A stretch of DNA of 38,793 bases from Dokdonella sp. (GTDB lineage: Bacteria; Pseudomonadota; Gammaproteobacteria; Xanthomonadales; Rhodanobacteraceae), in NCBI RefSeq assembly GCF_019634845.1, contig NZ_JAHCAQ010000022.1, forward strand, positions 1 through 38,793, written 5' to 3'. How positions within the stretch are numbered: position 1 is the stretch's first letter; the number at the start of each line of letters is the position of its first letter. Below the pieces are notes generated by a model. The model made no database searches, was not told the DNA's origin, and worked only from the letters and a program-made list of their open reading frames with translations. The position numbers and the translations under genes are program-made. Shown one piece after another: positions 2,793 through 18,218 of the stretch.

Positions 2793-5267
2793 ATGTTGAA
2801 GACACGATCCGGTTCGCGCACCTGGGGTGCCGCGGTACTCGCATTGCTGCTCGGCGCAGCAGTCACCGGGCAGGCGCTGGCGCAAGCGGACAACGACGTG
2901 GTCGATCCGCCCGACCGGGTGGCACGACTGAGTTTCCTCGGCGGCGCGGTGAGCTTCCAGCCGGCCGGCGGCAAGGATTGGGTGCAGGCCTCATTGAACC
3001 GTCCGTTGATGGCCGGCGATTCGCTGCACACCGATCGCAACGCGCGCACCGAACTGCAACTGGGTGGCGCCACCGTGCGCATCGACGACCGCAGCTCGCT
3101 CAACCTGCTCAACCTCAACAACGATCTCGCGCAATTCGAGCTCAGCGAAGGCGTGCTGAGCCTGAGCGTGCGCAGCATCGCGCGGGGCCAGAGCTACGAG
3201 ATCGACACGCCGACGTTGGCATTCGTGACCACGATGCCGGGCCTGTACCGCATCGACATCGCCCCCGACGGACGCTCGACCATGGTCACGGTGTTCGAGG
3301 GCAACGCCGACGTTTACGGCGAGAACAATGCCAGCTACAGCGTGCGGGCCGGCAATTCCTACCGCTTCAACGACAGTGCGCTGCGCGACTACGAGATTCT
3401 CGACCTGCCGCGCGCCGACGATTTCGACAACTGGGTGGCATCGCGCCAGCGTGCCTACTCGCGTTCGGTATCGCGTCAGTACGTCGCCGACGACATGATC
3501 GGCGCCTACGACCTTGACGAATACGGTTCGTGGTCGACCGCGCGCGACTACGGCGCCGTGTGGTACCCGACGCAAGTCGCGGTGGGCTGGGCGCCGTACC
3601 GCAGCGGTTACTGGTCTTGGGTCGGCCCGTGGGGCTGGACCTGGATCGACAATTCGCCATGGGGTTTCGCGCCGTTCCACTACGGCCGCTGGGTCTATAT
3701 CGGCAACCGTTGGGGCTGGTGCCCGGGCCCGCGCCATGTGCGCGCGATCTATGCGCCGGCGATGGTGGCCTTCGTGGGCGGCCACGGCTGGGGCGCGAGC
3801 GTGTCGCTGGGTGGCCCGATCGGCTGGTTCCCGCTCGGCCCGCGTGATGTCTACGTGCCGTGGTACCACAGCTCGCACCGTTACTTCACCAACATCAACG
3901 TGCACAACACGACGATCATCAACAACGTGCGCATCACCAACGTCTACAACGACTATTCGCGTGGCCGCCCGGTGCCCGGCACCGACTACATGTGGCGCAA
4001 CAACCGTGCGGCGCTGACCGCGGTGTCGCGCGACACCTTCGTCGGTGCGCGCCCGGTGATGGCCGGTCGCGTCGATGTCAATGCCCGGCAGTGGAGCAAC
4101 GCCAACGTCGTCAGCCGCCTCGGCGTGGCGCCGACCGAAGGCAGCTTCGTCTCGGCTACGGCGCGCCGCGTCGACGAGCGTCCGCAAGCCGCGGTGCTGG
4201 AACGCCCGATCATTGCGCGCACCGCCCCCGCGCCGCGGGTGGCGCCGATCGGCGAACGCATCCAGGCCATCGAACGCAACGGCGGGCAACCGCTGGCACG
4301 CCCGCTGGACGCTGCCACGACGGCGCGCGGTCAAGCCGATGCCACGCGCGGCGTGGCAGCGCGGGTGCGCGTGGTCGACAGCACCGAGGCCCGGCCGCAG
4401 GCCCTGACGCGTGGCACGCCCGCCATGGCCGGCGATCGCACCACCGGCCCCGCCGGGCGCGGCGTGACACCGGCCGAGCGCGGCCTCACGCCCACCGAGC
4501 GCAACACGGCGCCGGTGGAGCGCGGCTCCATGCCCGCCGAACGCAGCGTAACCCCCATGGAGCGCGGCAGCACGCCGGTCGTGCGCGGCGCGACCCCGCT
4601 GCAGCGCGGCGACGCCGAATCGCCGGTGACGCCGCGTGACGAGAGCCGGGGCGCGCGCGGTAATGAGCGCGCCTTGCCGTCCTCGCGTTTCGCGCCGTCG
4701 CGTGGCAACGCCGAACCCGCGACGCTGCCGCAGAATCGCGATGGCAACCGGGCGCTGGAGCGCACGCGCACGCTCGATTCCGCTGCGTCGCCGACACCCG
4801 GCAACGTCCGCTCGCGCAGCAACGACGCGCCCGTGCAGCAGCGCGAGGACAGCCAGTCCGGGCTGCGCTCGCGCGGCTATGCGCCTGCGCAGCAGGAGCG
4901 CTCGATGGAGCAGCCCGCGACCCGCTCGCGCGGCTACGAGGCACCGCAACAGCAACGCGACGACAGCCAGCCGGCGTTCCGCTCTCGCGGCTACGAGGCA
5001 CCGCAACAGCAGCGTGAGGTGAGCCAGCCGACGTTCCGCCAGCGCAGCTACGAAGCGCCGCAACAGCGCGCGATGGAGCAGCCTGCCGTGCGCTCGCGCG
5101 GCTACGAGGCGCCGCAACCGGCCGCACAACCACGCGTCGAGGCACCACGGGAAATGCGCCAGGCGTCGCCACCGCGCGAGTCGGCCCCGGCACGCGAATC
5201 GGCGCCGGCGCGCCGCGGCAACCGCGACGAATCCGACAGTGGTGGGCGCAGCTACGAGCGCCGCTGA
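2793..5267 (+). CDS. Secreted FecR-domain protein with Trp-rich region and repetitive basic tail
   Basis: Encodes 824 residues. The start is supported by a GAGGAGGAG ribosome site just upstream. A signal peptide is visible (hydrophobic 12-28, cleavage near ALA-QA at 30-31). Residues about 43-150 form a FecR-like beta domain (GDSLHTDRNARTELQLGG, then a strand-rich stretch ending VFEGNADVYGE). Residues about 250-316 are rich in Trp, Gly and Tyr (WVGPWGWTWIDNSPWG), as in DUF6600-type proteins. The remainder is low-complexity: about 9-residue units of the form TPxERG near 555-605, then five 18-19-residue units starting RSRGYEAPQQQ near 692-775. No enzyme motif is seen. It is probably exported to the periplasm or cell surface; unlike classical FecR it shows no cytoplasmic N-domain or central membrane anchor. 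Function is unknown. Confidence 0.85.
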   Translation: MLKTRSGSRTWGAAVLALLLGAAVTGQALAQADNDVVDPPDRVARLSFLGGAVSFQPAGGKDWVQASLNRPLMAGDSLHTDRNARTELQLGGATVRIDDRSSLNLLNLNNDLAQFELSEGVLSLSVRSIARGQSYEIDTPTLAFVTTMPGLYRIDIAPDGRSTMVTVFEGNADVYGENNASYSVRAGNSYRFNDSALRDYEILDLPRADDFDNWVASRQRAYSRSVSRQYVADDMIGAYDLDEYGSWSTARDYGAVWYPTQVAVGWAPYRSGYWSWVGPWGWTWIDNSPWGFAPFHYGRWVYIGNRWGWCPGPRHVRAIYAPAMVAFVGGHGWGASVSLGGPIGWFPLGPRDVYVPWYHSSHRYFTNINVHNTTIINNVRITNVYNDYSRGRPVPGTDYMWRNNRAALTAVSRDTFVGARPVMAGRVDVNARQWSNANVVSRLGVAPTEGSFVSATARRVDERPQAAVLERPIIARTAPAPRVAPIGERIQAIERNGGQPLARPLDAATTARGQADATRGVAARVRVVDSTEARPQALTRGTPAMAGDRTTGPAGRGVTPAERGLTPTERNTAPVERGSMPAERSVTPMERGSTPVVRGATPLQRGDAESPVTPRDESRGARGNERALPSSRFAPSRGNAEPATLPQNRDGNRALERTRTLDSAASPTPGNVRSRSNDAPVQQREDSQSGLRSRGYAPAQQERSMEQPATRSRGYEAPQQQRDDSQPAFRSRGYEAPQQQREVSQPTFRQRSYEAPQQRAMEQPAVRSRGYEAPQPAAQPRVEAPREMRQASPPRESAPARESAPARRGNRDESDSGGRSYERR

Positions 5268-8991: not shown

Positions 8992-9978
8992 ATGAACGAC
9001 ACCGCCGACCGCGACCCTGCCGCGCCCAGCCCTGCCCCACGCTGGCGGCGCCCATCGTTGCTGGTGCCGGCGGCGCTGCTGGCCTTGTACCTGGTGTGGG
9101 GCTCGACCTACCTGGCGATCCGCATCGCACTGGTGAGCTGGCCGCCGTTCCTGCTCGCCGGCGTGCGCTTCCTCGGCGCGGGCCTCGCGCTGTTCGCCTT
9201 CCTGCGCTGGCGCGGCATGCCGGCGCCGACCGCGCGGCAGTGGCGCAACTGCGCGCTGAGCGGAGCCATGCTGCTGGGGCTCGGCAATGGCCTGGTCTGC
9301 TACGCGGAGCAGGTCGTCGCCTCGGGCCTGGCTGCGGTGGCGGTCGCCAGCATGCCGCTGTTCGCGGCGATCTTCGGTGGCATCTGGGGCCAGTGGCCAC
9401 ATCGCCACGAATGGCTCGGCCTCGCGGTCGGTTTCGCCGGCGTCATCGTGCTCAACTTCGGCAGCGGCATGGCCGGCGCGCCACTGGGCGCGCTCGCGTT
9501 GGTGGTGGCAGCGGCGGCATGGGCGTTCGGCTCGATCTGGAGCAAGCAGCGCGACATGCCGGCGCCGGCAATGAACACGGCCGCGCAGATGCTCACTGCC
9601 GGCGTATTGCTGTTGTTGTTCGCCGCCGTGATCGGCGAGCGCTGGCCGGTCGCGGCGCCGCTGGCAGCCAACCTCGCCCTGCTGTACCTGGCCGTGTTCG
9701 GCTCGATCATCGGGTTCAGCGCCTATCTCTACCTGCTCGGCCACGTGCGGCCCGCGTTGGCCACGAGCTATGCCTACGTCAATCCGCCAGTGGCCGTGCT
9801 GATCGGCGCACTGTTCGGCGGCGAGACCGTGCACGGCGGCGATCTCGTCGCGATGGCGATCATCCTCGCCGGCGTGGCCATCCTCGCGCTCACGCGCGGA
9901 CGCGGCGTCACAACTCCCGCAGCGCCGTCGTCACCGGCAGGCGCGCGGCCTGCAGCGCCGGAAACAGTCCGCCGATGA
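8992..9978 (+). CDS. yedA: EamA-family drug/metabolite exporter, YedA-like
   Basis: A 328-residue inner-membrane protein with ten predicted helices in two EamA repeats. LYLVWGSTYLAIRIAL in the first helix, GLVCYAEQVVASGLAAVAVA in the third to fourth, and PALATSYAYVNPPVAVLIG near the end are characteristic of the YedA/DMT group, which exports small metabolites or amino-acid-like compounds. After the tenth helix, the last about 24 residues (from GVTTPAAP) are an Ala/Pro-rich tail. That tail is encoded in DNA that also encodes, on the other strand, the end of the ABC permease gene (overlap 9908-9978). The exported substrate is not known. Confidence 0.88.
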   Translation: MNDTADRDPAAPSPAPRWRRPSLLVPAALLALYLVWGSTYLAIRIALVSWPPFLLAGVRFLGAGLALFAFLRWRGMPAPTARQWRNCALSGAMLLGLGNGLVCYAEQVVASGLAAVAVASMPLFAAIFGGIWGQWPHRHEWLGLAVGFAGVIVLNFGSGMAGAPLGALALVVAAAAWAFGSIWSKQRDMPAPAMNTAAQMLTAGVLLLLFAAVIGERWPVAAPLAANLALLYLAVFGSIIGFSAYLYLLGHVRPALATSYAYVNPPVAVLIGALFGGETVHGGDLVAMAIILAGVAILALTRGRGVTTPAAPSSPAGARPAAPETVRR

Positions 9979-11218
9979 AGCCGATCACGAGCGCCCACTT
10001 GAGGCCCGTCAGGACGAGCGCCGGCGACACGCGGAATGCGAACACGACCTGGCTGAAATTCTGGCTCAGCGTCGACACCGTGTAGTTGTCGAACAGGAGC
10101 CACGCCACCGCCGCACCCAGCAAGCCGCCGGCGAGCGCCAGCAGCATCGTTTCCAGCATCACCGATACCACCACCGGCAGGCCGCGGAAGCCGATCGCGC
10201 GCAAGGTGGCGATTTCGCGCGCGCGCGCGGCAACGGCGGCATACATCGTGTTGAGCGCGCCGAAGATCGCGCCGATCGCCATGATCGCGCCGACCACGCT
10301 GCCGACGATGCGGAGCAGCCGGCTCAGCCCTTCGGACTGCTTGCTGAAGTACGCACGCGTGGTCTCGGCATCGACCTTGAGCTGCGGATTGGCCGCCAGC
10401 GCGGCCTTGAAGCCGTCCAACGCATCGGCGTTGACGAGCTTGACCGTGACATCGGTGACGCTGTTGCCGCGACGATAGGTCGAAGCGACGATGTCGGCGT
10501 CGGCCCATACCTCGGAGTCGAACGCATCGCCCGCGCGGAACGTGCCGACCACGGTCCAGACCTGGTTGTTGAGGCGGATCTGCGCCCCCAGCTCCAGTCC
10601 CTGGAACTGCTCGGCGGCGCCCTTGCCGACCACGAGTTCGCGCAGACCCGGCTCGAAGTAGCGCCCGGCGGTGATCTCGACCTGCGGGCGCAGCTCGCGC
10701 ACTTGCGGTCCGACGCCGCGGATCTGCACGTTGGCATCGAGGCCGCTGCCCTGGCGCGGCAGCGAGGCCACCACCACGAGCTCGGGTGAAGCGATCGGCC
10801 GACCCTGTGCGTCCTTGAGGATGCCGGGCGCCTGCTCGATCTGCACCACGGCATCGTGCAGCAGCACCGAATTGAGCTCGGCATTGGCGCCGGCACGCGT
10901 GACCAGCACGGTATCGTCGCTGCCGGTTTCCGCCAGCGTGGCACGGAAGCCCTCACCCATCGCGAGCAATGCCACCAGCACGCCGACCACGCCGGCGATG
11001 CCGACCACGACCACCGACGACGAACCCAGCCGCTGACCCAGCGTGGACAGGCCCACCCGCGTGACGGCCCAGGTCTGCTGGCCGCGATGACTCAGCACCA
11101 TCCACAGTGCCAACACGATCGCCAGCGCGAGCAGTGCCGGCCACGGCAGCATGGCCAGCGGCACGGCCGTCGCGAGCAGCGCGAGCGTGATGGCGAGGTT
11201 TGGCAGCAGTTTGCGCAT
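9908..11218 (-). CDS. ABC transporter permease, FtsX/MacB type (second permease)
   Basis: A 436-residue membrane protein with the MacB_PCD plus FtsX layout. One or two helices lie near the N-terminus (about 8-45), another at about 70-90 (SSSVVVVGIAGVVGVLVALL), then a large periplasmic domain (about 95-310). Three C-terminal helices follow, with the FtsX signature AREIATLRAIGFR. It is the last gene of a four-gene operon (adaptor, ATPase, permease, permease), 11 bp after the preceding permease. Such split MacAB or DevBCA-like systems export peptides, lipids or drugs, or act as mechanotransmission complexes; the cargo here is unknown. Its 3' end overlaps the convergent yedA-like gene by 71 bp. 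Confidence 0.9.
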   Translation of the reverse strand: MRKLLPNLAITLALLATAVPLAMLPWPALLALAIVLALWMVLSHRGQQTWAVTRVGLSTLGQRLGSSSVVVVGIAGVVGVLVALLAMGEGFRATLAETGSDDTVLVTRAGANAELNSVLLHDAVVQIEQAPGILKDAQGRPIASPELVVVASLPRQGSGLDANVQIRGVGPQVRELRPQVEITAGRYFEPGLRELVVGKGAAEQFQGLELGAQIRLNNQVWTVVGTFRAGDAFDSEVWADADIVASTYRRGNSVTDVTVKLVNADALDGFKAALAANPQLKVDAETTRAYFSKQSEGLSRLLRIVGSVVGAIMAIGAIFGALNTMYAAVAARAREIATLRAIGFRGLPVVVSVMLETMLLALAGGLLGAAVAWLLFDNYTVSTLSQNFSQVVFAFRVSPALVLTGLKWALVIGFIGGLFPALQAARLPVTTALREL

Positions 11219-11229
11219 GACAGTCTCCC

Positions 11230-12390
11230 TCAACGTCCAGCCAGCGCATCGACGATGCGCAGGCGCATGCCGCGCAGCGCCGGCAGCGCGCCGACCACGA
11301 GTCCGATGCCGATCATCATGGCGATGCCGAACAGCCAGGTCGCCAGCCGCACCTGATCGGGCAGCAGGCCGCGCACCTGGGTGCTCATCACCGGCACGAT
11401 GAGCGCCGCGAGCGCGATGCCGATGAGGCCGCCGAGCAGGATCAGCAGCACCGACTCGGCGAGCACCAGGCCGAGCACGCTGCGGTTGGAGAAGCCGATC
11501 GTCTTGAGCACCGCGAGCTCGGGAATGCGCTCGCGCACGGCCTGCGCCATGGTGTTGCCGGTGAGCAGGATCAGCGTGAAGAACACCGCGCTCATGATGC
11601 CGGCGACGATGAGGCCGATGTCGGCGAACTGGCTCACGAAGGCGCGGTTGAACGCGTTCTCGCTCTGCGTCTTGGTCTCGTGGTCGGAGTTGGCCGAGAT
11701 CGCGTCGATCGCGTGCGCGACCGCGTCGGCCTGGTTCACATCGGCGAGCTGGGCCACGTAGAAGCCGATGCGGCCACGGTCGAACGGCCGCGACTCGTCG
11801 AGGTATTTCCAGCGGAAGAACAGGATCGACTCGCGGTTCTTCTCCTTGCGGTCCCGCGCATGGAAGATGCCGACGAGGTCGAAGGTCCAGGTGTTGCTGC
11901 CGTCGCGCTGCGGGAAGATCGTCGCCTGCAGCGGGATCTTGTCGCCGATCTTCCAGCCGAAGCGCTGCGCCAGCTCGGCACCGACGATGGCGCCGGTGCG
12001 CGTGTTGCGAAACGCGGCGCGCTGGTCCGCGGGCATCTCGTACTCGTCGAACAGGTCGAGGAAGTTGTCGCTGACGGCTTCGTTGGGAAAGAAGTTCCTG
12101 GGATCCTGATAGATGCCACCGAACCAGTTGCCGTAGGCCACCTCCTTGACGCCCGGCACGGCCTCGATGCGCGGCAACAGGCTCTGCGGCAGCGACACGG
12201 TCATGCTGATCCGGGACATCACCAGCAGCCGATCGACACCGGCCACGCTGTTGCCGGCGTCGCCAAACGCGGCGCGCACCGAGTCGAGCAGGCCGAACAG
12301 CAGGAACGCGGCCATCACCGAGGCCAGCGTGAATATCGTGCGTGCCTTGCGGCGGAACAACGCGGCCCAGATGAGATGGAGGTATTTCAT
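11230..12390 (-). CDS. ABC transporter permease, FtsX/MacB type (first permease)
   Basis: A 386-residue permease starting MKYLHLIWAALFRRKARTIFT, typical for the FtsX-like family, with one N-terminal helix (about 18-38), a periplasmic MacB_PCD domain (about 50-255) and three C-terminal helices. RERIPELAVLKTIGFSNRSV is the conserved cytoplasmic coupling segment. It presumably pairs with the downstream permease as a heterodimer served by the single ATPase gene upstream. A longer reading from 12435 adds 15 residues with no homology, so 12390 is preferred. The 135-bp gap to the ATPase gene holds no other ORF that I can support. Confidence 0.9.
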   Translation of the reverse strand: MKYLHLIWAALFRRKARTIFTLASVMAAFLLFGLLDSVRAAFGDAGNSVAGVDRLLVMSRISMTVSLPQSLLPRIEAVPGVKEVAYGNWFGGIYQDPRNFFPNEAVSDNFLDLFDEYEMPADQRAAFRNTRTGAIVGAELAQRFGWKIGDKIPLQATIFPQRDGSNTWTFDLVGIFHARDRKEKNRESILFFRWKYLDESRPFDRGRIGFYVAQLADVNQADAVAHAIDAISANSDHETKTQSENAFNRAFVSQFADIGLIVAGIMSAVFFTLILLTGNTMAQAVRERIPELAVLKTIGFSNRSVLGLVLAESVLLILLGGLIGIALAALIVPVMSTQVRGLLPDQVRLATWLFGIAMMIGIGLVVGALPALRGMRLRIVDALAGR

Positions 12391-12525
12391 GGGATGGGCT
12401 CGATGGTGGTGGAGGAACGGGCCGGCGCCTGCCACGATCGCGCGGGCGGGACGCCGGCAGCGCCATCGGCAATGCTCCTGCGCCGACCGTCGGTGGTGAC
12501 CGCATGCTGCACGGACATGGCGGCG

Positions 12526-13215
<690 letters not shown>

Positions 13216-13248
13216 CTCGGTTCCTCGCTGTGCGCCCGCCGGCGCGTG

Positions 13249-14481
13249 CTATTTGCGTGCTGCCTCGACGCGCGCGCCATCGCCGAGGTCGGCGCCCGGC
13301 TTGCGCACCACGCGCGTACCGGCGGCGACGCCCTCGACCAGGCGCTGGTCGGCCTGGGCCCGTCCCGGCGTCACCGCGCGCTGCCGCACCCGTCCGTCCT
13401 CGACGACGAACACGACGCTGCGTCCGTCGCGCTGCACGATCGCATCGGTCGGCACCAGCACGCCGCTCGGTGGCGGCGCCGCGCCCGCGCCGTCCTTGTC
13501 GTCCTCGAGGAAGGACACGCGCACGCCCATGTCGGGCACGATCCGCGCGTCCTTCTCGTTGAAACCGATGCGCACCTTGACCGTGGCCTTGCCGCGGTCG
13601 GCGGCCGGGATGATCGCGATCACGTGCGCGGGGATCTTCCAGTCGGGATAGGCGTCGAGCACGGCTTCGACCGGCTGGCCCGCGACCACGCGCTGGATGT
13701 AGGCCTCGTTGACGTCGACCTCGATCTCGAGCGAATCCATGTCGACGATCGTGCCCACGCCGGTGCGCGTGAAGCCGCCGCCGGCCGACAGCGGCGAGAC
13801 GATCTCGCCGACCTGGGCGGCCTTGGCGGTGATGACGCCCGCGAACGGCGCGCGCACCGTGCAGTAGTCGAGCTGCACCTGCGCCGCGTTGACGTTGGCC
13901 TGCGCCACCTCGACCTGGCGCGCCTGCGCCTGCACCAGCGCGCGCTGGCTCGCGACCTGGGTACGCGCGAGCTCCACCGCCTGGCGCGAGACGAGCTGGC
14001 GGCCGAGGAGTTCGGTCGCGCGCCGCTCGTCGCGTTCGTTCTGCGCGAGCTGGGCGCGCGCCTGCTCGAGCTGCGCCTGCGCGGCGCGCAGTCCGGCTTG
14101 CGCCTGCGCGAGCATCGCCTTCTGCGCGGCGTCCTCGAGCGTGGCCAATACCTGCCCCGCCGCGACGCGCTCGCCCTCCTCGATCAGCACCTGGGTCAGC
14201 GTGCCCGTGATCTGCGCCGATACCGTGGCCTGCCGCCGCGCGGTCACGTAGCCGGTCGCCTGCAGTACGGCCATGCTGGCGGCCCCACCCGCCTGTGGCG
14301 CAGTCGCGACGGCCGTTTCGACCACCAGCGCGCGCGTGCCGCGCAACAGCCACCAACCGCCCGCCGCCACGAGGAGCGCGACCCCCACGGCGAGCGCAAT
14401 CCAACGACCGCGCGACGCTCCCGTCGCGGTTGGCGCCGAGCGGTCGATACGCAGTTCCTTGAGCAGTTGCGACTGGTCCAT
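13249..14481 (-). CDS. Periplasmic adaptor (HlyD/MacA family) of the ABC export system
   Basis: A 410-residue membrane-fusion protein. A short cytoplasmic N-terminus is followed by one membrane helix (about 28-48), then split lipoyl halves (around GYVTARRQATVSAQITG and VRAPFAGVITAKAAQVGEIV). Between them is an Ala/Gln-rich alpha-helical hairpin (about 120-200). A beta-barrel and membrane-proximal domain follow, including VLVPTDAIVQRDGRSVVFVV. It would link the inner-membrane permeases to an outer-membrane channel; no TolC gene is present in the window, so a shared TolC is likely. I chose the ATG at 14481; 14520 is an alternative adding 13 residues. Neither has a good ribosome site. Confidence 0.9.
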   Translation of the reverse strand: MDQSQLLKELRIDRSAPTATGASRGRWIALAVGVALLVAAGGWWLLRGTRALVVETAVATAPQAGGAASMAVLQATGYVTARRQATVSAQITGTLTQVLIEEGERVAAGQVLATLEDAAQKAMLAQAQAGLRAAQAQLEQARAQLAQNERDERRATELLGRQLVSRQAVELARTQVASQRALVQAQARQVEVAQANVNAAQVQLDYCTVRAPFAGVITAKAAQVGEIVSPLSAGGGFTRTGVGTIVDMDSLEIEVDVNEAYIQRVVAGQPVEAVLDAYPDWKIPAHVIAIIPAADRGKATVKVRIGFNEKDARIVPDMGVRVSFLEDDKDGAGAAPPPSGVLVPTDAIVQRDGRSVVFVVEDGRVRQRAVTPGRAQADQRLVEGVAAGTRVVRKPGADLGDGARVEAARK

Positions 14482-14767
14482 GGCAGGCAGGAGATCAGGG
14501 CGAATCCCTGATTCTCGCATGCTGCGGCAAACGCAACGCGTCAGGGACTCGCGCTCATCATGGATCGCTCATGACGAATGTCATCCGGATTCCCAGAGCA
14601 CGACTGGAAGGGCGATGCGCGTTGCCTGGTCTTTCGATGGCGTTCGGCGACGATCGTGCGCACGGCCGTGCGAGTCCGTCGCTGTGCCATGCGGACGGCT
14701 TTAGCTCGGTGCCCAGCAGGAGAGTGCGGAAAAGCGAGCCCAGGCGAGTCGTCTGGCTCAAGTATGG

Positions 14768-15286
14768 TCAGCGCCTTTGCAGGTCAGCAATGAACGCTTG
14801 CGTGTCGTCCGGACTGACGATGACATCGTACGCACCGGTCGTAGGAACAAGCACGGCTCGCCCGGCAGTTTGCAGCACAAAGACCTTTCGTCCGCCGCGC
14901 GGTTGGAACCAGCCGAGCAAGAACCCAGGCAATCCCACGCCGTTGACTCGGATGCCGAGCGCCTTGCGCAACTCTGCCGAGTCTAACGTCACGATCGCTT
15001 CGCCCCGAATGGCGGATCGTGCAATCGTCTCTTTGTAGAGTCCACCGCCGACCGTCAACTGTGTCTCCTCCGTAACGATCTTCACCATGATCAATTGAGC
15101 GAGCAGAAAAATCGTAAGCGGGAGAGTCAGCACCCCAATCACCGCCGGAATCTTGAAGTTGACGCTTCCCGTGGCCAAATACAGCGCCAAGAGAACGGTT
15201 GCAAACGGCAAGACCGAAACTAAAACGACAATGACTAGAATCGGCTTGAAGTTGAATGATGATATGGTGTATAGCGTCGCGCTCAT
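14768..15286 (-). CDS. Membrane protein with bacterial PH-like domain, third gene of the radical SAM operon
   Basis: Encodes 172 residues. Two hydrophobic helices (about 15-38 and 46-68) anchor the N-terminus. The remainder (about 70-172) is a beta-rich domain ending DDTQAFIADLQRR, which resembles the short bacterial pleckstrin-homology domains (bPH type) that follow paired helices. That assignment is by pattern only. It starts 19 bp after the stop of the Tat-signal protein gene, with an AGG ribosome site, so it belongs to the same minus-strand operon. Codon use is less GC-rich than in the flanking genes. Role unknown; a membrane partner, immunity or scaffold function for the operon product is possible. 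Confidence 0.75.
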   Translation of the reverse strand: MSATLYTISSFNFKPILVIVVLVSVLPFATVLLALYLATGSVNFKIPAVIGVLTLPLTIFLLAQLIMVKIVTEETQLTVGGGLYKETIARSAIRGEAIVTLDSAELRKALGIRVNGVGLPGFLLGWFQPRGGRKVFVLQTAGRAVLVPTTGAYDVIVSPDDTQAFIADLQRR

Positions 15287-15305
15287 GACTACCGTACCTT
15301 TTGAT

Positions 15306-16406
15306 TCAAACCCGGTCCAGTCCCAAGCATTTCCAAGAATACCGAGTCACGACGTCGATGATGTTTGGCAACACGTCCTGCGAGACCGGTAGTAGATTGA
15401 CGTTGCGCATCGCTGTCAGAACCGCATGAACTTCCAACTGGACCGCTTGCTTGGCGCTATACACTTGCAGTCCCGCGTCGTCGGTCAGGACGGCCAATCG
15501 CACCGCGCGCTCGGCGTTGCGCATGGCCGCCGGATCAAGCTTCACGAATTCGCCGGTGAACGATGAGGAAACCAACCCGGCATCCGTTCCAAACCGATTG
15601 GACTCTGGATTGGTTCCGCCGACCACGATCGCGGTTTTCACCGCGGCGCTGATGAACACAGCCGCAAGTATGCCGACCGTGGCCGCGATGACCACGGACA
15701 CATAGGCAACGACCGTCGCCGCGATGCCAACCGCCACCACGCACAACGCCACCGCCGTACACATCGGCTGCGGCCCGGCTCCAATGTGCTCGACCAAGAC
15801 CTGGCTGAGGCTCACGATATCGTCGTCGCTTAGCACCGTGTCGCCGCTGTCGATCGACGCGAGCAACGCTCGCTGCTTCGTCTGTTCGACGTACGGCTGG
15901 ATCGCCGCAATCGACATCTGAATCTCCTCGATGTTTTCGCGGAAGATCTGCTCGACATGGGACTGGAGTGCCGAGGGATCGGTCGAGGTGAATACGCCGG
16001 CATCGATGAGCTGACTGAACACCGAGACATAGTCGCTCTTCGCAAGTGCGGTTTTCACCGCGGGATCCGCAATCGCCCGGAGAAGTACCACCGTCTCCGT
16101 GGCGAGGGTTCGATCTGATGCGTCCAATCCAATGGAGCCCAGATATCCCGTTGGGTCTTTGTGGAAGGCGGTGCTCTCCGATGGATTAGTAAGGACGTTC
16201 TCCCACAGCTTGGCGACCTTCGACAACCCATCCCAAAGCTCACTTGGTACCTTTGCCTTGGAAAGAGGGAGCTTGAACTTGTCCAAGTCCGAGATGTCGC
16301 GTGGTTGGACGCTCGCCGGCGTGCCGTAAAGCCGACCTGCCGTTCCCACCGCCAAAGGCGCGCCGAGCGCCGCGACGCCACCTTTGAGAAATTTTCTGCG
16401 TTTCAT
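15306..16406 (-). CDS. Tat-signal protein with long hydrophobic segment; candidate substrate of the radical SAM enzyme
   Basis: Encodes 366 residues. The N-terminus MKRRKFLKGG followed by an Ala/Gly/Leu stretch (11-24) fits a twin-arginine export signal. Residues about 50-205 look alpha-helical and soluble, with LWENVLTNPSESTAF at 68-81. Residues about 216-263 form a striking Val/Ala/Ile-rich hydrophobic block containing C216 and C222; a polar stretch starts with GGTNPESNRFG. The C-terminus has WKCLGLDRV with C360, the only other cysteine. Its ATG overlaps the radical SAM stop codon (ATGA), so the two are translationally coupled. I do not recognise the family. A modified, exported protein or a large RiPP-like precursor are possibilities suggested by context, not shown. 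Confidence 0.75.
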   Translation of the reverse strand: MKRRKFLKGGVAALGAPLAVGTAGRLYGTPASVQPRDISDLDKFKLPLSKAKVPSELWDGLSKVAKLWENVLTNPSESTAFHKDPTGYLGSIGLDASDRTLATETVVLLRAIADPAVKTALAKSDYVSVFSQLIDAGVFTSTDPSALQSHVEQIFRENIEEIQMSIAAIQPYVEQTKQRALLASIDSGDTVLSDDDIVSLSQVLVEHIGAGPQPMCTAVALCVVAVGIAATVVAYVSVVIAATVGILAAVFISAAVKTAIVVGGTNPESNRFGTDAGLVSSSFTGEFVKLDPAAMRNAERAVRLAVLTDDAGLQVYSAKQAVQLEVHAVLTAMRNVNLLPVSQDVLPNIIDVVTRYSWKCLGLDRV

Positions 16407-17491
16407 GCCTCTACCTCCATTGACACCAACGCTGTAACCGTTTTGCCCGGCAATGGAACGTGCTCGAGTTCCTTTTGTTTTCTTACGGCTTCCAAAGAGA
16501 AACGGGTCATAATTTCCGTAACGAATTCGGAATAGCGTTCAACCAAGGCCTCGCGGACGTGTTGATTCTGATGAAGAATCACGCACGCTTGGCAAATATG
16601 GACGACGCCTTTGAGCAGGCCGTTGGCGTCATCGCCAAGCAATCGCTTGATGATCATGTAGGGCCCGTCGACGTGAATCCAATACTTCAGAAAATCATCA
16701 ATCTGCGAGCGGTAGAGGTCGCGCATCGTCGAGGCTTCATCGATGTGACCGAGCCGCATCTCAGGGATGTGCTCAAGGGTCAGTCCGCAGCAGGCCGACA
16801 GGTTGCTGTGCGGCGTCACGACGACCGTTTCAAAAATCTGGCTGCACCCATCTTCCAATGAATCGTGCGCGTTGGGCATCTTGCGTTGTTGGGCGTCCTC
16901 ATTAAAGGGCATCCAGCTATTGGATTGGATCTTCAGCAGGCGCGTTTGGAGCGCGTCTCGAATCACCGGGTGGTTGACGATGTCGCGCAGGCAGTTCGCC
17001 TCGGCCGGATCAGTTTCGACTGTGATGAGCGTGGAGATACCCGACTTCGTCAACGCGAACGCCGCGTTCGCGACACTAGTGATGGGGACCCACTCCTGAT
17101 GGTCGGCACCGGTGCTGATGTTGATTTCCGTGAGACCCGACAACTTCAAGCGGTTCGCAGTCGCAAATGCGTGATCTGCACTCTTTCCCCACGACCCGTT
17201 CGTTACGATCCGCGTCATGAGGCCCAACGACGTCGCCAATTCAACCGCGACGTACAAGTCCTCTTTGAGAAGAAACGCCTCACCGCCGCTGAAGACGACC
17301 AGCCTCAAGCCCGGAAAGCTGTCTTTCGCTTCGTGAATGCGTTCGAGAATTTGGCCGCGACTCAACCGGCCGACAACGTTCGGGGACGATTCGAAGCAAC
17401 ACTGCCGACATGCGGCCGTGCACTGGTACGTCGTCAGGATTGTCAGTGTGTGCGGAAACGAGCGTTCCATCAGAGCATCGAGCGTGTCCAT
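16403..17491 (-). CDS. Radical SAM enzyme with probable auxiliary iron-sulfur cluster
   Basis: Encodes 362 residues. The 4Fe-4S/SAM motif is C24-x3-C28-x2-C31 (CTAACRQCC), the SAM-binding GGE-type motif is FSGGEAFLL at 68-75, and the strand-rich partial TIM barrel follows. Further cysteines at C216, C234/C235, C300 and C303 (SACCGL and HICQAC) are placed like ligands of a SPASM/twitch-type auxiliary cluster, as in enzymes that modify peptides or proteins. The start at 17491 is decided by AGGAG exactly 7 nt upstream; a TTG-initiated extension to 17584 is unlikely. It is the first gene of a three-gene operon and overlaps the Tat-signal gene by 4 nt. The lower GC suggests lateral acquisition. 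The substrate is not known. Confidence 0.88.
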   Translation of the reverse strand: MDTLDALMERSFPHTLTILTTYQCTAACRQCCFESSPNVVGRLSRGQILERIHEAKDSFPGLRLVVFSGGEAFLLKEDLYVAVELATSLGLMTRIVTNGSWGKSADHAFATANRLKLSGLTEINISTGADHQEWVPITSVANAAFALTKSGISTLITVETDPAEANCLRDIVNHPVIRDALQTRLLKIQSNSWMPFNEDAQQRKMPNAHDSLEDGCSQIFETVVVTPHSNLSACCGLTLEHIPEMRLGHIDEASTMRDLYRSQIDDFLKYWIHVDGPYMIIKRLLGDDANGLLKGVVHICQACVILHQNQHVREALVERYSEFVTEIMTRFSLEAVRKQKELEHVPLPGKTVTALVSMEVEA

Positions 17492-17584
17492 CACTCCTCT
17501 CCTATAACGACGTCTAATCTGAACACACAAACGAACGGTTTGAATAGCTCTAGCCATCCAGACGTCGCCGAGTTTCTTTCGCAA

Positions 17585-18218
17585 TAACGTTTAGCCGGAT
17601 CGGTGATTCAATACTGGTATTAACGTCACCGTACTGATCGGCACAACTGTTCCCACCGCAGCAAGGTGTTGAACCAAAATAGCCCCTTGCATCTTCTCAA
17701 CTCAGCGAGTCCAGTACTGGCCAAGGTTCGCGTTAGCAAAATCACCCACTTGCGTCGTCGATCCGCGTGCGATCCACCCCTTGGTCACGCTATCAGGCTG
17801 TCTCTCTCAACAGCCTGATAGTGGTCATTTTCACCGAGGCGCGCACGTGTCCTCGGCCGCTGGTCGTCACGCGAATCGCTTGCTAGACGATCCACTTTGC
17901 ATGGCAGGAGAACCATGACTACGTGACTGCGGCGTGTCAACCGAGAACGCACAAAAATGTGACCAAGTCAGCAAAATCAGCGCGCTTCTTGATGCCCCGC
18001 ATTCTCCGAATGCGCCCCGCGGCGGACAACCGCGCGGCCGATGTCCGCGCGCAAAGCCGACGCCGGGGATCGTCAGCATCATGCCGCGCCACGGATCGGC
18101 GCGTGGAGCGCGACGCTGCGTCAACGTTGCTTGATTCTTCAAATCCGATTCGAACGCGGATCAAACGACCTTGGCCGGATGCTGTCGCGGGATGCCACTG
18201 TCGCCTACACTTGCGCGC
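17585..18218. other. Non-coding stretch upstream of the radical SAM operon
   Basis: No gene can be supported in these 634 bases. Short open frames exist on both strands (for example 17867-18142 minus and 17923-18222 plus), but they lack ribosome sites and have unremarkable composition. The left half is clearly lower in GC than the chromosome; the right half (from about 18000) returns to high GC, which places the right edge of the foreign-looking segment near there. The main structure is the perfect inverted repeat at 17790-17821. The promoter of the radical SAM operon should lie in 17500-17800, but I see no convincing -35/-10 pair. Confidence 0.6.
17790..17821. repeat. Perfect 12-bp inverted repeat (stem-loop or operator)
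   Basis: CTATCAGGCTGT (17790-17801) and ACAGCCTGATAG (17810-17821) are exact inverse complements separated by CTCTCTCA. There is no T-run directly after either arm on its own strand, so it is not a typical intrinsic terminator. It stands about 300 bp before the radical SAM start, where an operator or a structured leader would sit. Confidence 0.6.

What the first reader, a model, noticed from the sequence alone, without database searches (positions are those of the whole stretch)
14768..17491. Uncharacterised radical SAM / Tat-substrate / membrane PH-domain operon
Three co-directional genes form a tight unit: a radical SAM enzyme with extra cysteines placed like an auxiliary cluster, a 366-residue protein with a twin-arginine signal that overlaps it by 4 nt, and a two-helix membrane protein with a PH-like domain 19 nt further on. 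Enzymes of this kind are known to modify peptides or proteins made by adjacent genes. I recognise neither partner family, and no peptidase, ABC exporter or immunity gene of a known RiPP class is obvious within the operon, although a MacAB-like export system lies just downstream (9908-14481, same strand). Base composition differs from the surroundings. A new protein-maturation or RiPP-like system is a reasonable hypothesis, not a conclusion.
Basis: partly seen in the sequence, partly recalled or inferred. Interest (0 to 1): 0.8.

Follow-up and report, generated by a model that had tools for sequence, protein, structure and literature searches.

The report
Predicted peptide-flipping toxin operon
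Three linked genes probably make, export and protect against a membrane-active protein whose oily stretch is remodelled (amino acids flipped to mirror form) by an enzyme related to one that matures a known Bacillus antibiotic peptide; nothing about it has been tested at the bench.

The parts
16403..17491 (-). EpeE/YydG-like radical SAM enzyme, 362 aa; predicted peptide epimerase
17399..17422 (-). C24-x3-C28-x2-C31 radical SAM cluster motif, followed by CFESSP (EpeE: CFSSSP)
16844..16846 (-). C216, predicted auxiliary-cluster ligand (aligns with EpeE C206)
   Evidence: invariant in 14 of 14 rows
16787..16792 (-). C234-C235 pair; aligns with EpeE C222-C223, C223 being EpeE's proposed H-atom donor
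   Evidence: invariant in 14 of 14 rows incl. EpeE; role of Cys223 from PMC8326336 passages
16583..16594 (-). C300-x2-C303, predicted further cluster ligands
   Evidence: invariant in 7 of 7 close relatives; at least 90% in the wider alignment, whose EpeE row stops short of it
15306..16406 (-). 366-aa predicted substrate/precursor protein with RR signal
   Evidence: conserved partner of the rSAM
16311..16406 (-). twin-arginine-type signal (RRKFLK...) and following RLYGTPAS block, residues 1-32
   Evidence: R3, R4, R25, G28, P30, S32 invariant in 8 of 8
16125..16166 (-). leader-like motif F-x3-P-x3-L-x3-G-L (residues 81-94)
   Evidence: strict pattern in 9 of 17 partner proteins, 0.04 expected from shuffles (pattern chosen after inspection; absent from 4 of 9 trio-type members)
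15615..15761 (-). predicted core: residues 216-264, V/I/A/G/T-rich, Leu-poor hydrophobic segment, starting C-x5-C
14768..15286 (-). two-helix membrane protein with bacterial PH domain; predicted immunity/tolerance protein
   Evidence: PF10882 residues 69-172 E 4.7e-9; 7 of 8 members of A8 match at E up to 1
14771..15082 (-). bPH_5 domain of the membrane protein
14521..18170 (.). extent of the inserted stretch (outer limits): MacA-like gene on one side, FAH-family gene (longest ORF) on the other

Best explanation
A horizontally moving, epipeptide-like toxin operon. Step 1 (inferred): the EpeE-like radical SAM enzyme binds the precursor in the cytoplasm, probably through its helical leader region, and abstracts Calpha hydrogens from Val/Ile/Ala residues of the hydrophobic core (about residues 216-264); Cys235 returns a hydrogen from the other face, giving D-residues. 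Step 2 (inferred from the RR signal): the modified protein leaves by the Tat route. Step 3 (inferred): the core acts on membranes of competing bacteria. Step 4 (inferred): the membrane PH protein protects the producer, taking the place that SdpI proteins may hold in two remote relatives. Shown here by computation: the conserved trio, the enzyme's EpeE-like fold with the donor Cys pair, co-occurrence of enzyme and precursor, the insertion, and PH genes that stand alone. My separate estimates: enzyme acts on the Tat protein 0.8; reaction is epimerisation 0.6; product is membrane-active and antibacterial 0.5; PH protein is immunity 0.45.
Against: No substrate, product or activity is shown. rSAM scores 63.8 bits against the YydG cut-off of 300. 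EpeE Asp210 has no conserved acidic counterpart: residue 221 is E/E/D/D/N/N/S and 222 T or N in 7 relatives. The AlphaFold model of the Tat protein is poor (pLDDT 54, core under 50) and has no PDB match at E 0.001. The window protein is under Pfam's Tat cut-off. The broad PH family is widespread (192 of 297 genomes), so a PH gene alone is no sign of immunity, and in EntDD14 the PH proteins serve transport while other proteins are the immunity candidates. An SdpI, DUF1648, DUF3784 or PH gene was seen in 5 of 9 plasmid clusters (SdpI itself in 2); none was recognised in Streptomyces, Rhizobium, E. mundtii or L. lactis. No partner protein was recognised beside the Rhizobium enzyme. No dedicated peptidase is in the trio. 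G135's PH gene is itself shortened. The Collinsella enzyme as annotated starts after the CxxxCxxC motif.
Confidence: 0.55

Rival explanations
1. Same partners, different radical chemistry: the enzyme makes a thioether or carbon-carbon crosslink (sactionine-like or other) in the Tat protein, for example through C216/C222 of the core.
Against: The core Cys pair is present in 2 of 9 Tat proteins examined, while the enzyme's own Cys pair is invariant; EpeE stands well above the next fold match.
Confidence: 0.2
2. The Tat protein is a self-directed cell-envelope protein (sensor, enzyme subunit or structural protein) that needs a radical-installed modification; the PH protein helps it insert or assemble. 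No toxin is involved.
For: Large helical N- and C-terminal parts conserved beyond the core; Tat export suits a protein folded before export; PH membrane proteins are common in the family (192 of 297).
Against: Patchy presence (8 of 297; 6 of 398 including the window's own genome and two remote enzymes), low GC, prophage and plasmid carriage, SdpI genes in two remote clusters, stand-alone PH genes.
Confidence: 0.2
3. The PH protein is a transport or processing partner rather than immunity, as DdE/DdF are for enterocin DD14; the rest as in the best explanation.
For: PMC8657885 abstract: deletion of either PH gene stops export.
Against: A Tat signal needs no extra transporter (established knowledge); close PH relatives occur without Tat or rSAM matches in G088 and G309.
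Confidence: 0.25
4. The radical SAM enzyme is a prokaryotic viperin-like nucleotide enzyme of anti-phage defence.
For: PADLOC pVip E 2e-8 on residues 20-101; NCBIfam viperin model 7.5e-7 on residues 21-103.
Against: Matches confined to the radical SAM core; EpeE fits over the whole length including the auxiliary-cluster domain.
Confidence: 0.03

Closest known systems
Epipeptide system epeXEPAB / yydFGHIJ (EpeE/YydG epimerase)
   Same: Radical SAM enzyme of the same overall fold with auxiliary-cluster Cys and the catalytic Cys pair; found on mobile DNA
   Different: Precursor would be a 366-aa RR-signal protein, not a peptide of about 50 aa; no membrane peptidase or ABC transporter in the trio; PH protein instead; rSAM 20% identical to the EpeE stretch
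Polytheonamide/aeronamide proteusins (PoyD/AerD-type epimerases)
   Same: Works-like only: V/A/G-rich core of about 40-55 residues; three remote relatives have alternating Asn and a methyltransferase
   Different: [quoted passage not shown] the window has no methyltransferase in the trio
SDP toxin SdpC with SdpI immunity
   Same: Weak SdpC profile hits (5 of 8 members, best E 0.42); SdpI genes in two remote clusters
   Different: Not significant; no SdpI in the window trio; SdpA/SdpB were not searched for
Enterocin DD14-type leaderless bacteriocins
   Same: Small two-helix membrane PH protein (DdE, 135 aa) in a membrane-active bacteriocin operon
   Different: DdE's domain is called bPH2; leaderless, unmodified peptides; no radical SAM among the ten genes tabulated

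Membership tests
Epipeptide (EpeX/EpeE) system | Radical SAM enzyme with EpeE fold and auxiliary cluster | tested here: met
   [not shown]
Epipeptide (EpeX/EpeE) system | Donor Cys223 equivalent | tested here: met
   C235, invariant in 14 of 14
Epipeptide (EpeX/EpeE) system | Enzyme over the TIGR04078 YydG cut-off | tested here: not met
   63.8 bits against 300; 7 of 7 relatives match the model, best E 9e-23
Epipeptide (EpeX/EpeE) system | Short YydF-type precursor | tested here: inconclusive
   ORFs of 25 aa or more in the 900 nt upstream of rSAM in 8 loci: only two short matches among Xanthomonas, at the rSAM end; a diverged peptide could be missed
Epipeptide (EpeX/EpeE) system | Peptidase EpeP and ABC transporter EpeAB | tested here: not met
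   Not in the trio; neighbouring ORFs of L009 and L012 read by eye show neither within the operon; MacA-like gene is ancestral
Epipeptide (EpeX/EpeE) system | D-amino acids in the product | not testable with these tools
   needs mass spectrometry
SDP toxin family (TIGR04032) | Score over the model cut-off | tested here: not met
   9.8 bits against 99.2; best E 0.42 among 8 members
SDP toxin family (TIGR04032) | SdpI immunity gene beside it | tested here: not met
   PH protein in the window; SdpI only in the Thermus and Klebsiella clusters
Proteusin / polytheonamide type | PoyD-type epimerase (radical SAM cluster only) | tested here: not met
   auxiliary Cys conserved and EpeE-like fold over the whole length; PoyD-type described as lacking the second cluster (PMC8326336 passages)
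Proteusin / polytheonamide type | Nitrile-hydratase-like leader | tested here: inconclusive
   no such hit for the window protein; the Streptomyces partner has an NHLP-related hit, E 0.0012, under cut-off
Proteusin / polytheonamide type | D/L-alternating beta-helical core | not testable with these tools
   V/I parity in the window core 15 vs 5 (p 0.016) but lag test z -0.08
Bacterial PH domain bPH_5 (PF10882) | Score over gathering cut-off | tested here: met
   36.7 against 22.5

The most novel reading that the evidence does not exclude
EpeE-type epimerases head a cross-phylum family of channel-forming toxins. The enzyme flips alternate residues along a 40-55-residue segment embedded in a much larger protein, so that the segment folds as a D/L beta-helical pore like gramicidin or polytheonamide; in the window's clade the pore is delivered as a Tat-exported protein with PH-type immunity, elsewhere as Asn-alternating, methylated segments with SdpI-type immunity. 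This would be polytheonamide-like chemistry reached by a different enzyme family.
Probability: 0.25. Interest if true: 0.92.

Novelty: new variant of a known kind. Interest (0 to 1): 0.72.

Why it matters
Epipeptides are described from Gram-positives (PMC8326336 passages) with a precursor of about 50 residues. A Gram-negative version with a 366-residue Tat-signal precursor and a membrane PH protein would widen the known substrates of peptide epimerases from peptides to exported proteins, suggest a function for some bacterial PH proteins, and link EpeE-like enzymes to SdpI genes and to alternating-Asn segments that look like channel cores. It is small (three genes, 2.7 kb), so directly testable.

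Tried and rejected
MacAB as exporter: rejected. SdpC homology: weak hits repeated but never significant; an SdpC search of 200 genomes gave one weak hit, E 1.9e-4, whose ORFs read as unrelated; kept only as a works-like lead. A separate small precursor upstream: none conserved. Deposited phages: no match at E 1e-10; IMG/VR gave 7 loci, one with only residues 12-61. Structure of the Tat protein: low confidence, no PDB match at E 0.001. Alternation in the cores: lag test over 17 segments Stouffer 3.25 against -0.29 for 14 controls for bulky residues, but 2.67 against 1.46 for V/I, the window itself -0.08 and 0.34, and rows are related; V/I parity is below 0.05 only for window and Eleftheria among 14, uncorrected, and over all 14 Stouffer is 1.81 against -0.56; bulky and small residues show no parity overall. 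Lag-2 shuffle test for Asn: Thermus 0/5000, Klebsiella 425/5000, Collinsella 693/5000. Viperin/defence: core-only match. PHROGs: no match at E 0.001 for the three window proteins. Pfam, NCBIfam: no family for the Tat protein above cut-off. The first genome-contig scan with the single sequence found nothing; the second used patterns from four close sequences and so reaches close kin only. Repeats around the insertion: no clear flanking repeat noted.

Tree: the trio clade has 100/99 support, Eleftheria beside the window 94/98; the YydG row and several others are very long branches, so their places are unsure.

Print: searches (20 of 60 papers listed; 15 of 20; 12 of 38; 15 of 54; 12 of 14; 12 of 77) listed no paper that, by title or start of abstract, describes this trio; most subscription papers are not held, and a look-up by the DOI I recalled for the EpeE structure paper found nothing.

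Full report
OBSERVATION. The three ORFs are intact and lie at the stated coordinates. The rSAM gene overlaps the Tat-protein gene by 4 nt, and the PH gene starts 19 nt after it. Trio G+C is 57.2% against 69.4% for the flanks of the window; in 8 of 8 loci measured the trio is poorer in G+C than its flanks.

INSERTION. The 11 of 15 congeners that are at least 99% complete were searched with the MacA-like protein; 11 of 11 have it. In 9 of 11 the FAH-family gene lies 0.1-0.7 kb upstream of it, and no trio protein is detected in any of the 11 loci held; in 2 (L080, L085) no FAH gene was found in the held flank. Whether a small gene lies between the two in some of them was not examined. In the window the same two genes stand about 3.65 kb apart with the trio between. 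So the trio was most likely inserted, and the MacAB genes are old neighbours. The Tat protein was not found in any of the 15 congeners.

DISTRIBUTION AND SYNTENY. Among 398 genomes of the order, 6 have an rSAM match at E 1e-20: the window's own, G071, G255 and G348 of the trio type, and two remote ones, G218 and G132 (L007, L008). A profile scan of one genome per species, with patterns taken from four close sequences, confirmed 7 loci: one Luteimonas, two Stenotrophomonas, four Xanthomonas. With G348 this makes 8 distinct loci outside the window. In a sample of 297 genomes of the neighbouring family, 8 have the rSAM at E 1e-40 and the same 8 have a full-length Tat gene. The other 5 Tat matches are fragments or marginal: G285, G095 and G135 keep only the last 52-67 profile positions; G837 and G342 score E about 5e-4. 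Among 398 genomes of the phylum the Tat profile found only the window, G071 and the G095 fragment. G943 and G908 carry another PH protein in third place (G943: PF06713 E 1.7e-25, PF10882 1.6e-5; G908 gene seen). In G908 the rSAM is split into two frames, and ORFs that I recall as transposases lie in and around the operon. In L032 (a Xanthomonas-type genome) the trio sits between a phage tail gene (phrog_52, E 6.5e-152) and a regulator gene with weak phage-regulator matches; the same neighbours are seen in L091 and L093 from IMG/VR.

REMOTE RELATIVES. tblastn of the window enzyme against 72,556 plasmids gives 9 records at E 1e-10. Eleftheria terrae (Burkholderiales) has rSAM, a 368-aa MKRR... 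protein and a PH protein (Pfam bPH_5 only 17.6 bits against 22.5; BLASTP to the window protein over 54 residues, E 3e-10): the same trio. In Thermus, Klebsiella and Collinsella a protein next to the enzyme carries an Asn-rich segment in which Asn keeps one parity: 17 of 17, 10 of 10 and 12 of 14 in the densest 45 residues (shuffle results for lag 2 are in Tried and rejected); each cluster has a methyltransferase. The Rhizobium cluster also has a methyltransferase, but no such partner was recognised among its ORFs. Thermus has an SdpI gene right after the enzyme and Klebsiella one two genes upstream (PF13630), Collinsella a DUF1648 gene, Halocatena a DUF3784 gene; that the last two families resemble SdpI is recalled. 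No such gene was recognised in the Streptomyces, Rhizobium, E. mundtii or L. lactis clusters. SdpI belongs to the autoimmunity of SDP (PMC13343845, passages). N-methyl-Asn, epimerisation at every second residue and channel formation are features of polytheonamides (PMC11285071 passages; PMC8326336 passages). The motif F/Y-x3-P-x3-[LIVF]-x3-[GN]-[ILVF] occurs in 9 of 17 partner proteins (0.04 expected from shuffles): 6 of 10 of the trio type and 3 of 7 remote ones; it is in none of 9 control proteins of the window. I chose it after seeing several of the proteins. The Streptomyces, Halocatena, E. mundtii and L. lactis partners lack it but have a V/A-rich segment. A search with the Thermus enzyme reaches annotated YydG proteins; one aligned to it over 314 columns, has the CC pair and a C-x2-C near its end and stands beside an annotated YydF gene.

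THE TAT PROTEIN. Conserved: RR at 3-4, an R-x2-G-x-P-x-S block, the hydrophobic core and a C-terminal helical part. IniB_NTERM matches 5 of 8 members (best E 0.0018) and SdpC 5 of 8 (best 0.42), both weak. The pooled core is 5.9% Leu against 17.2% in TM segments of the partner PH proteins (26/444 vs 89/518, Fisher p 4e-8; rows are related, so p is optimistic). In pairwise alignment to the window protein the core is more identical than the rest in 8 of 9 cases and less in L013. I read this as a substrate segment rather than an ordinary membrane helix. Tests for alternation in the window core disagree: V/I parity 15 vs 5 (p 0.016), lag test z -0.08.

THE PH PROTEIN. Two helices and a bPH_5 domain. 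Its broad family is common (192 of 297 genomes), so only close members matter: matches at E below 1e-35 are in 6 of the 8 rSAM genomes, in G285 (Tat fragment, no rSAM match) and in G088 and G309 (no Tat or rSAM match). G095 keeps a complete PH gene beside its Tat fragment (E 2.4e-25), while in G135 the PH gene is shortened too. This pattern fits a retained immunity gene, without proving it. In enterocin DD14, PH proteins DdE/DdF are needed for export and their loss lets the bacteriocin harm the producer (PMC8657885 abstract).

MECHANISM AND LIMITS. Most likely: cytoplasmic epimerisation of the core by the EpeE-like enzyme, Tat export, membrane action, PH-based protection. Every functional step is inferred. 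The main weaknesses are a low-confidence Tat-protein model, the distance to YydG, and the doubtful role of a common PH family.

NOVELTY. It works like an epipeptide system but fails membership on peptidase, transporter and model cut-off, and no short precursor was found; hence a new variant of a known kind.

Noticed in passing
L097 2599-6074, L104 3859-7078, L103 3415-7176: Thermus, Klebsiella and Collinsella plasmid clusters: EpeE-like rSAM, methyltransferase, SdpI or DUF1648 gene and a protein with alternating Asn; look like polytheonamide-like channel clusters with another epimerase type.
   Followed up: partly
L007 1504-3934; L008 3-3934: Two genomes of the order have a remote rSAM relative between a methyltransferase-like gene and a second radical SAM gene; the gene names are my reading of the translations.
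   Followed up: no
L031 1150-7083: G908: three near-identical ORFs, recalled as transposases, in and around the operon; rSAM split into two frames.
   Followed up: no
L034 4979-5458; L045 879-1358: A 159-aa probable membrane protein upstream of the Tat-gene remnant in G095 and G135; family not searched.
   Followed up: no
window 17788-17823: 14-pair stem-loop with terminator-like tail between the FAH gene and the trio; the scan's count (3) is not above shuffles (mean 3.6).
   Followed up: no
L104 8793-10990: Beside the Klebsiella cluster: annotated toxin-activating lysine acyltransferase, HlyD-type adaptor and peptidase-domain ABC transporter.
   Followed up: no
window 4001-5000: G+C peaks at 75% with AT skew 0.19; cause not examined.
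   Followed up: no
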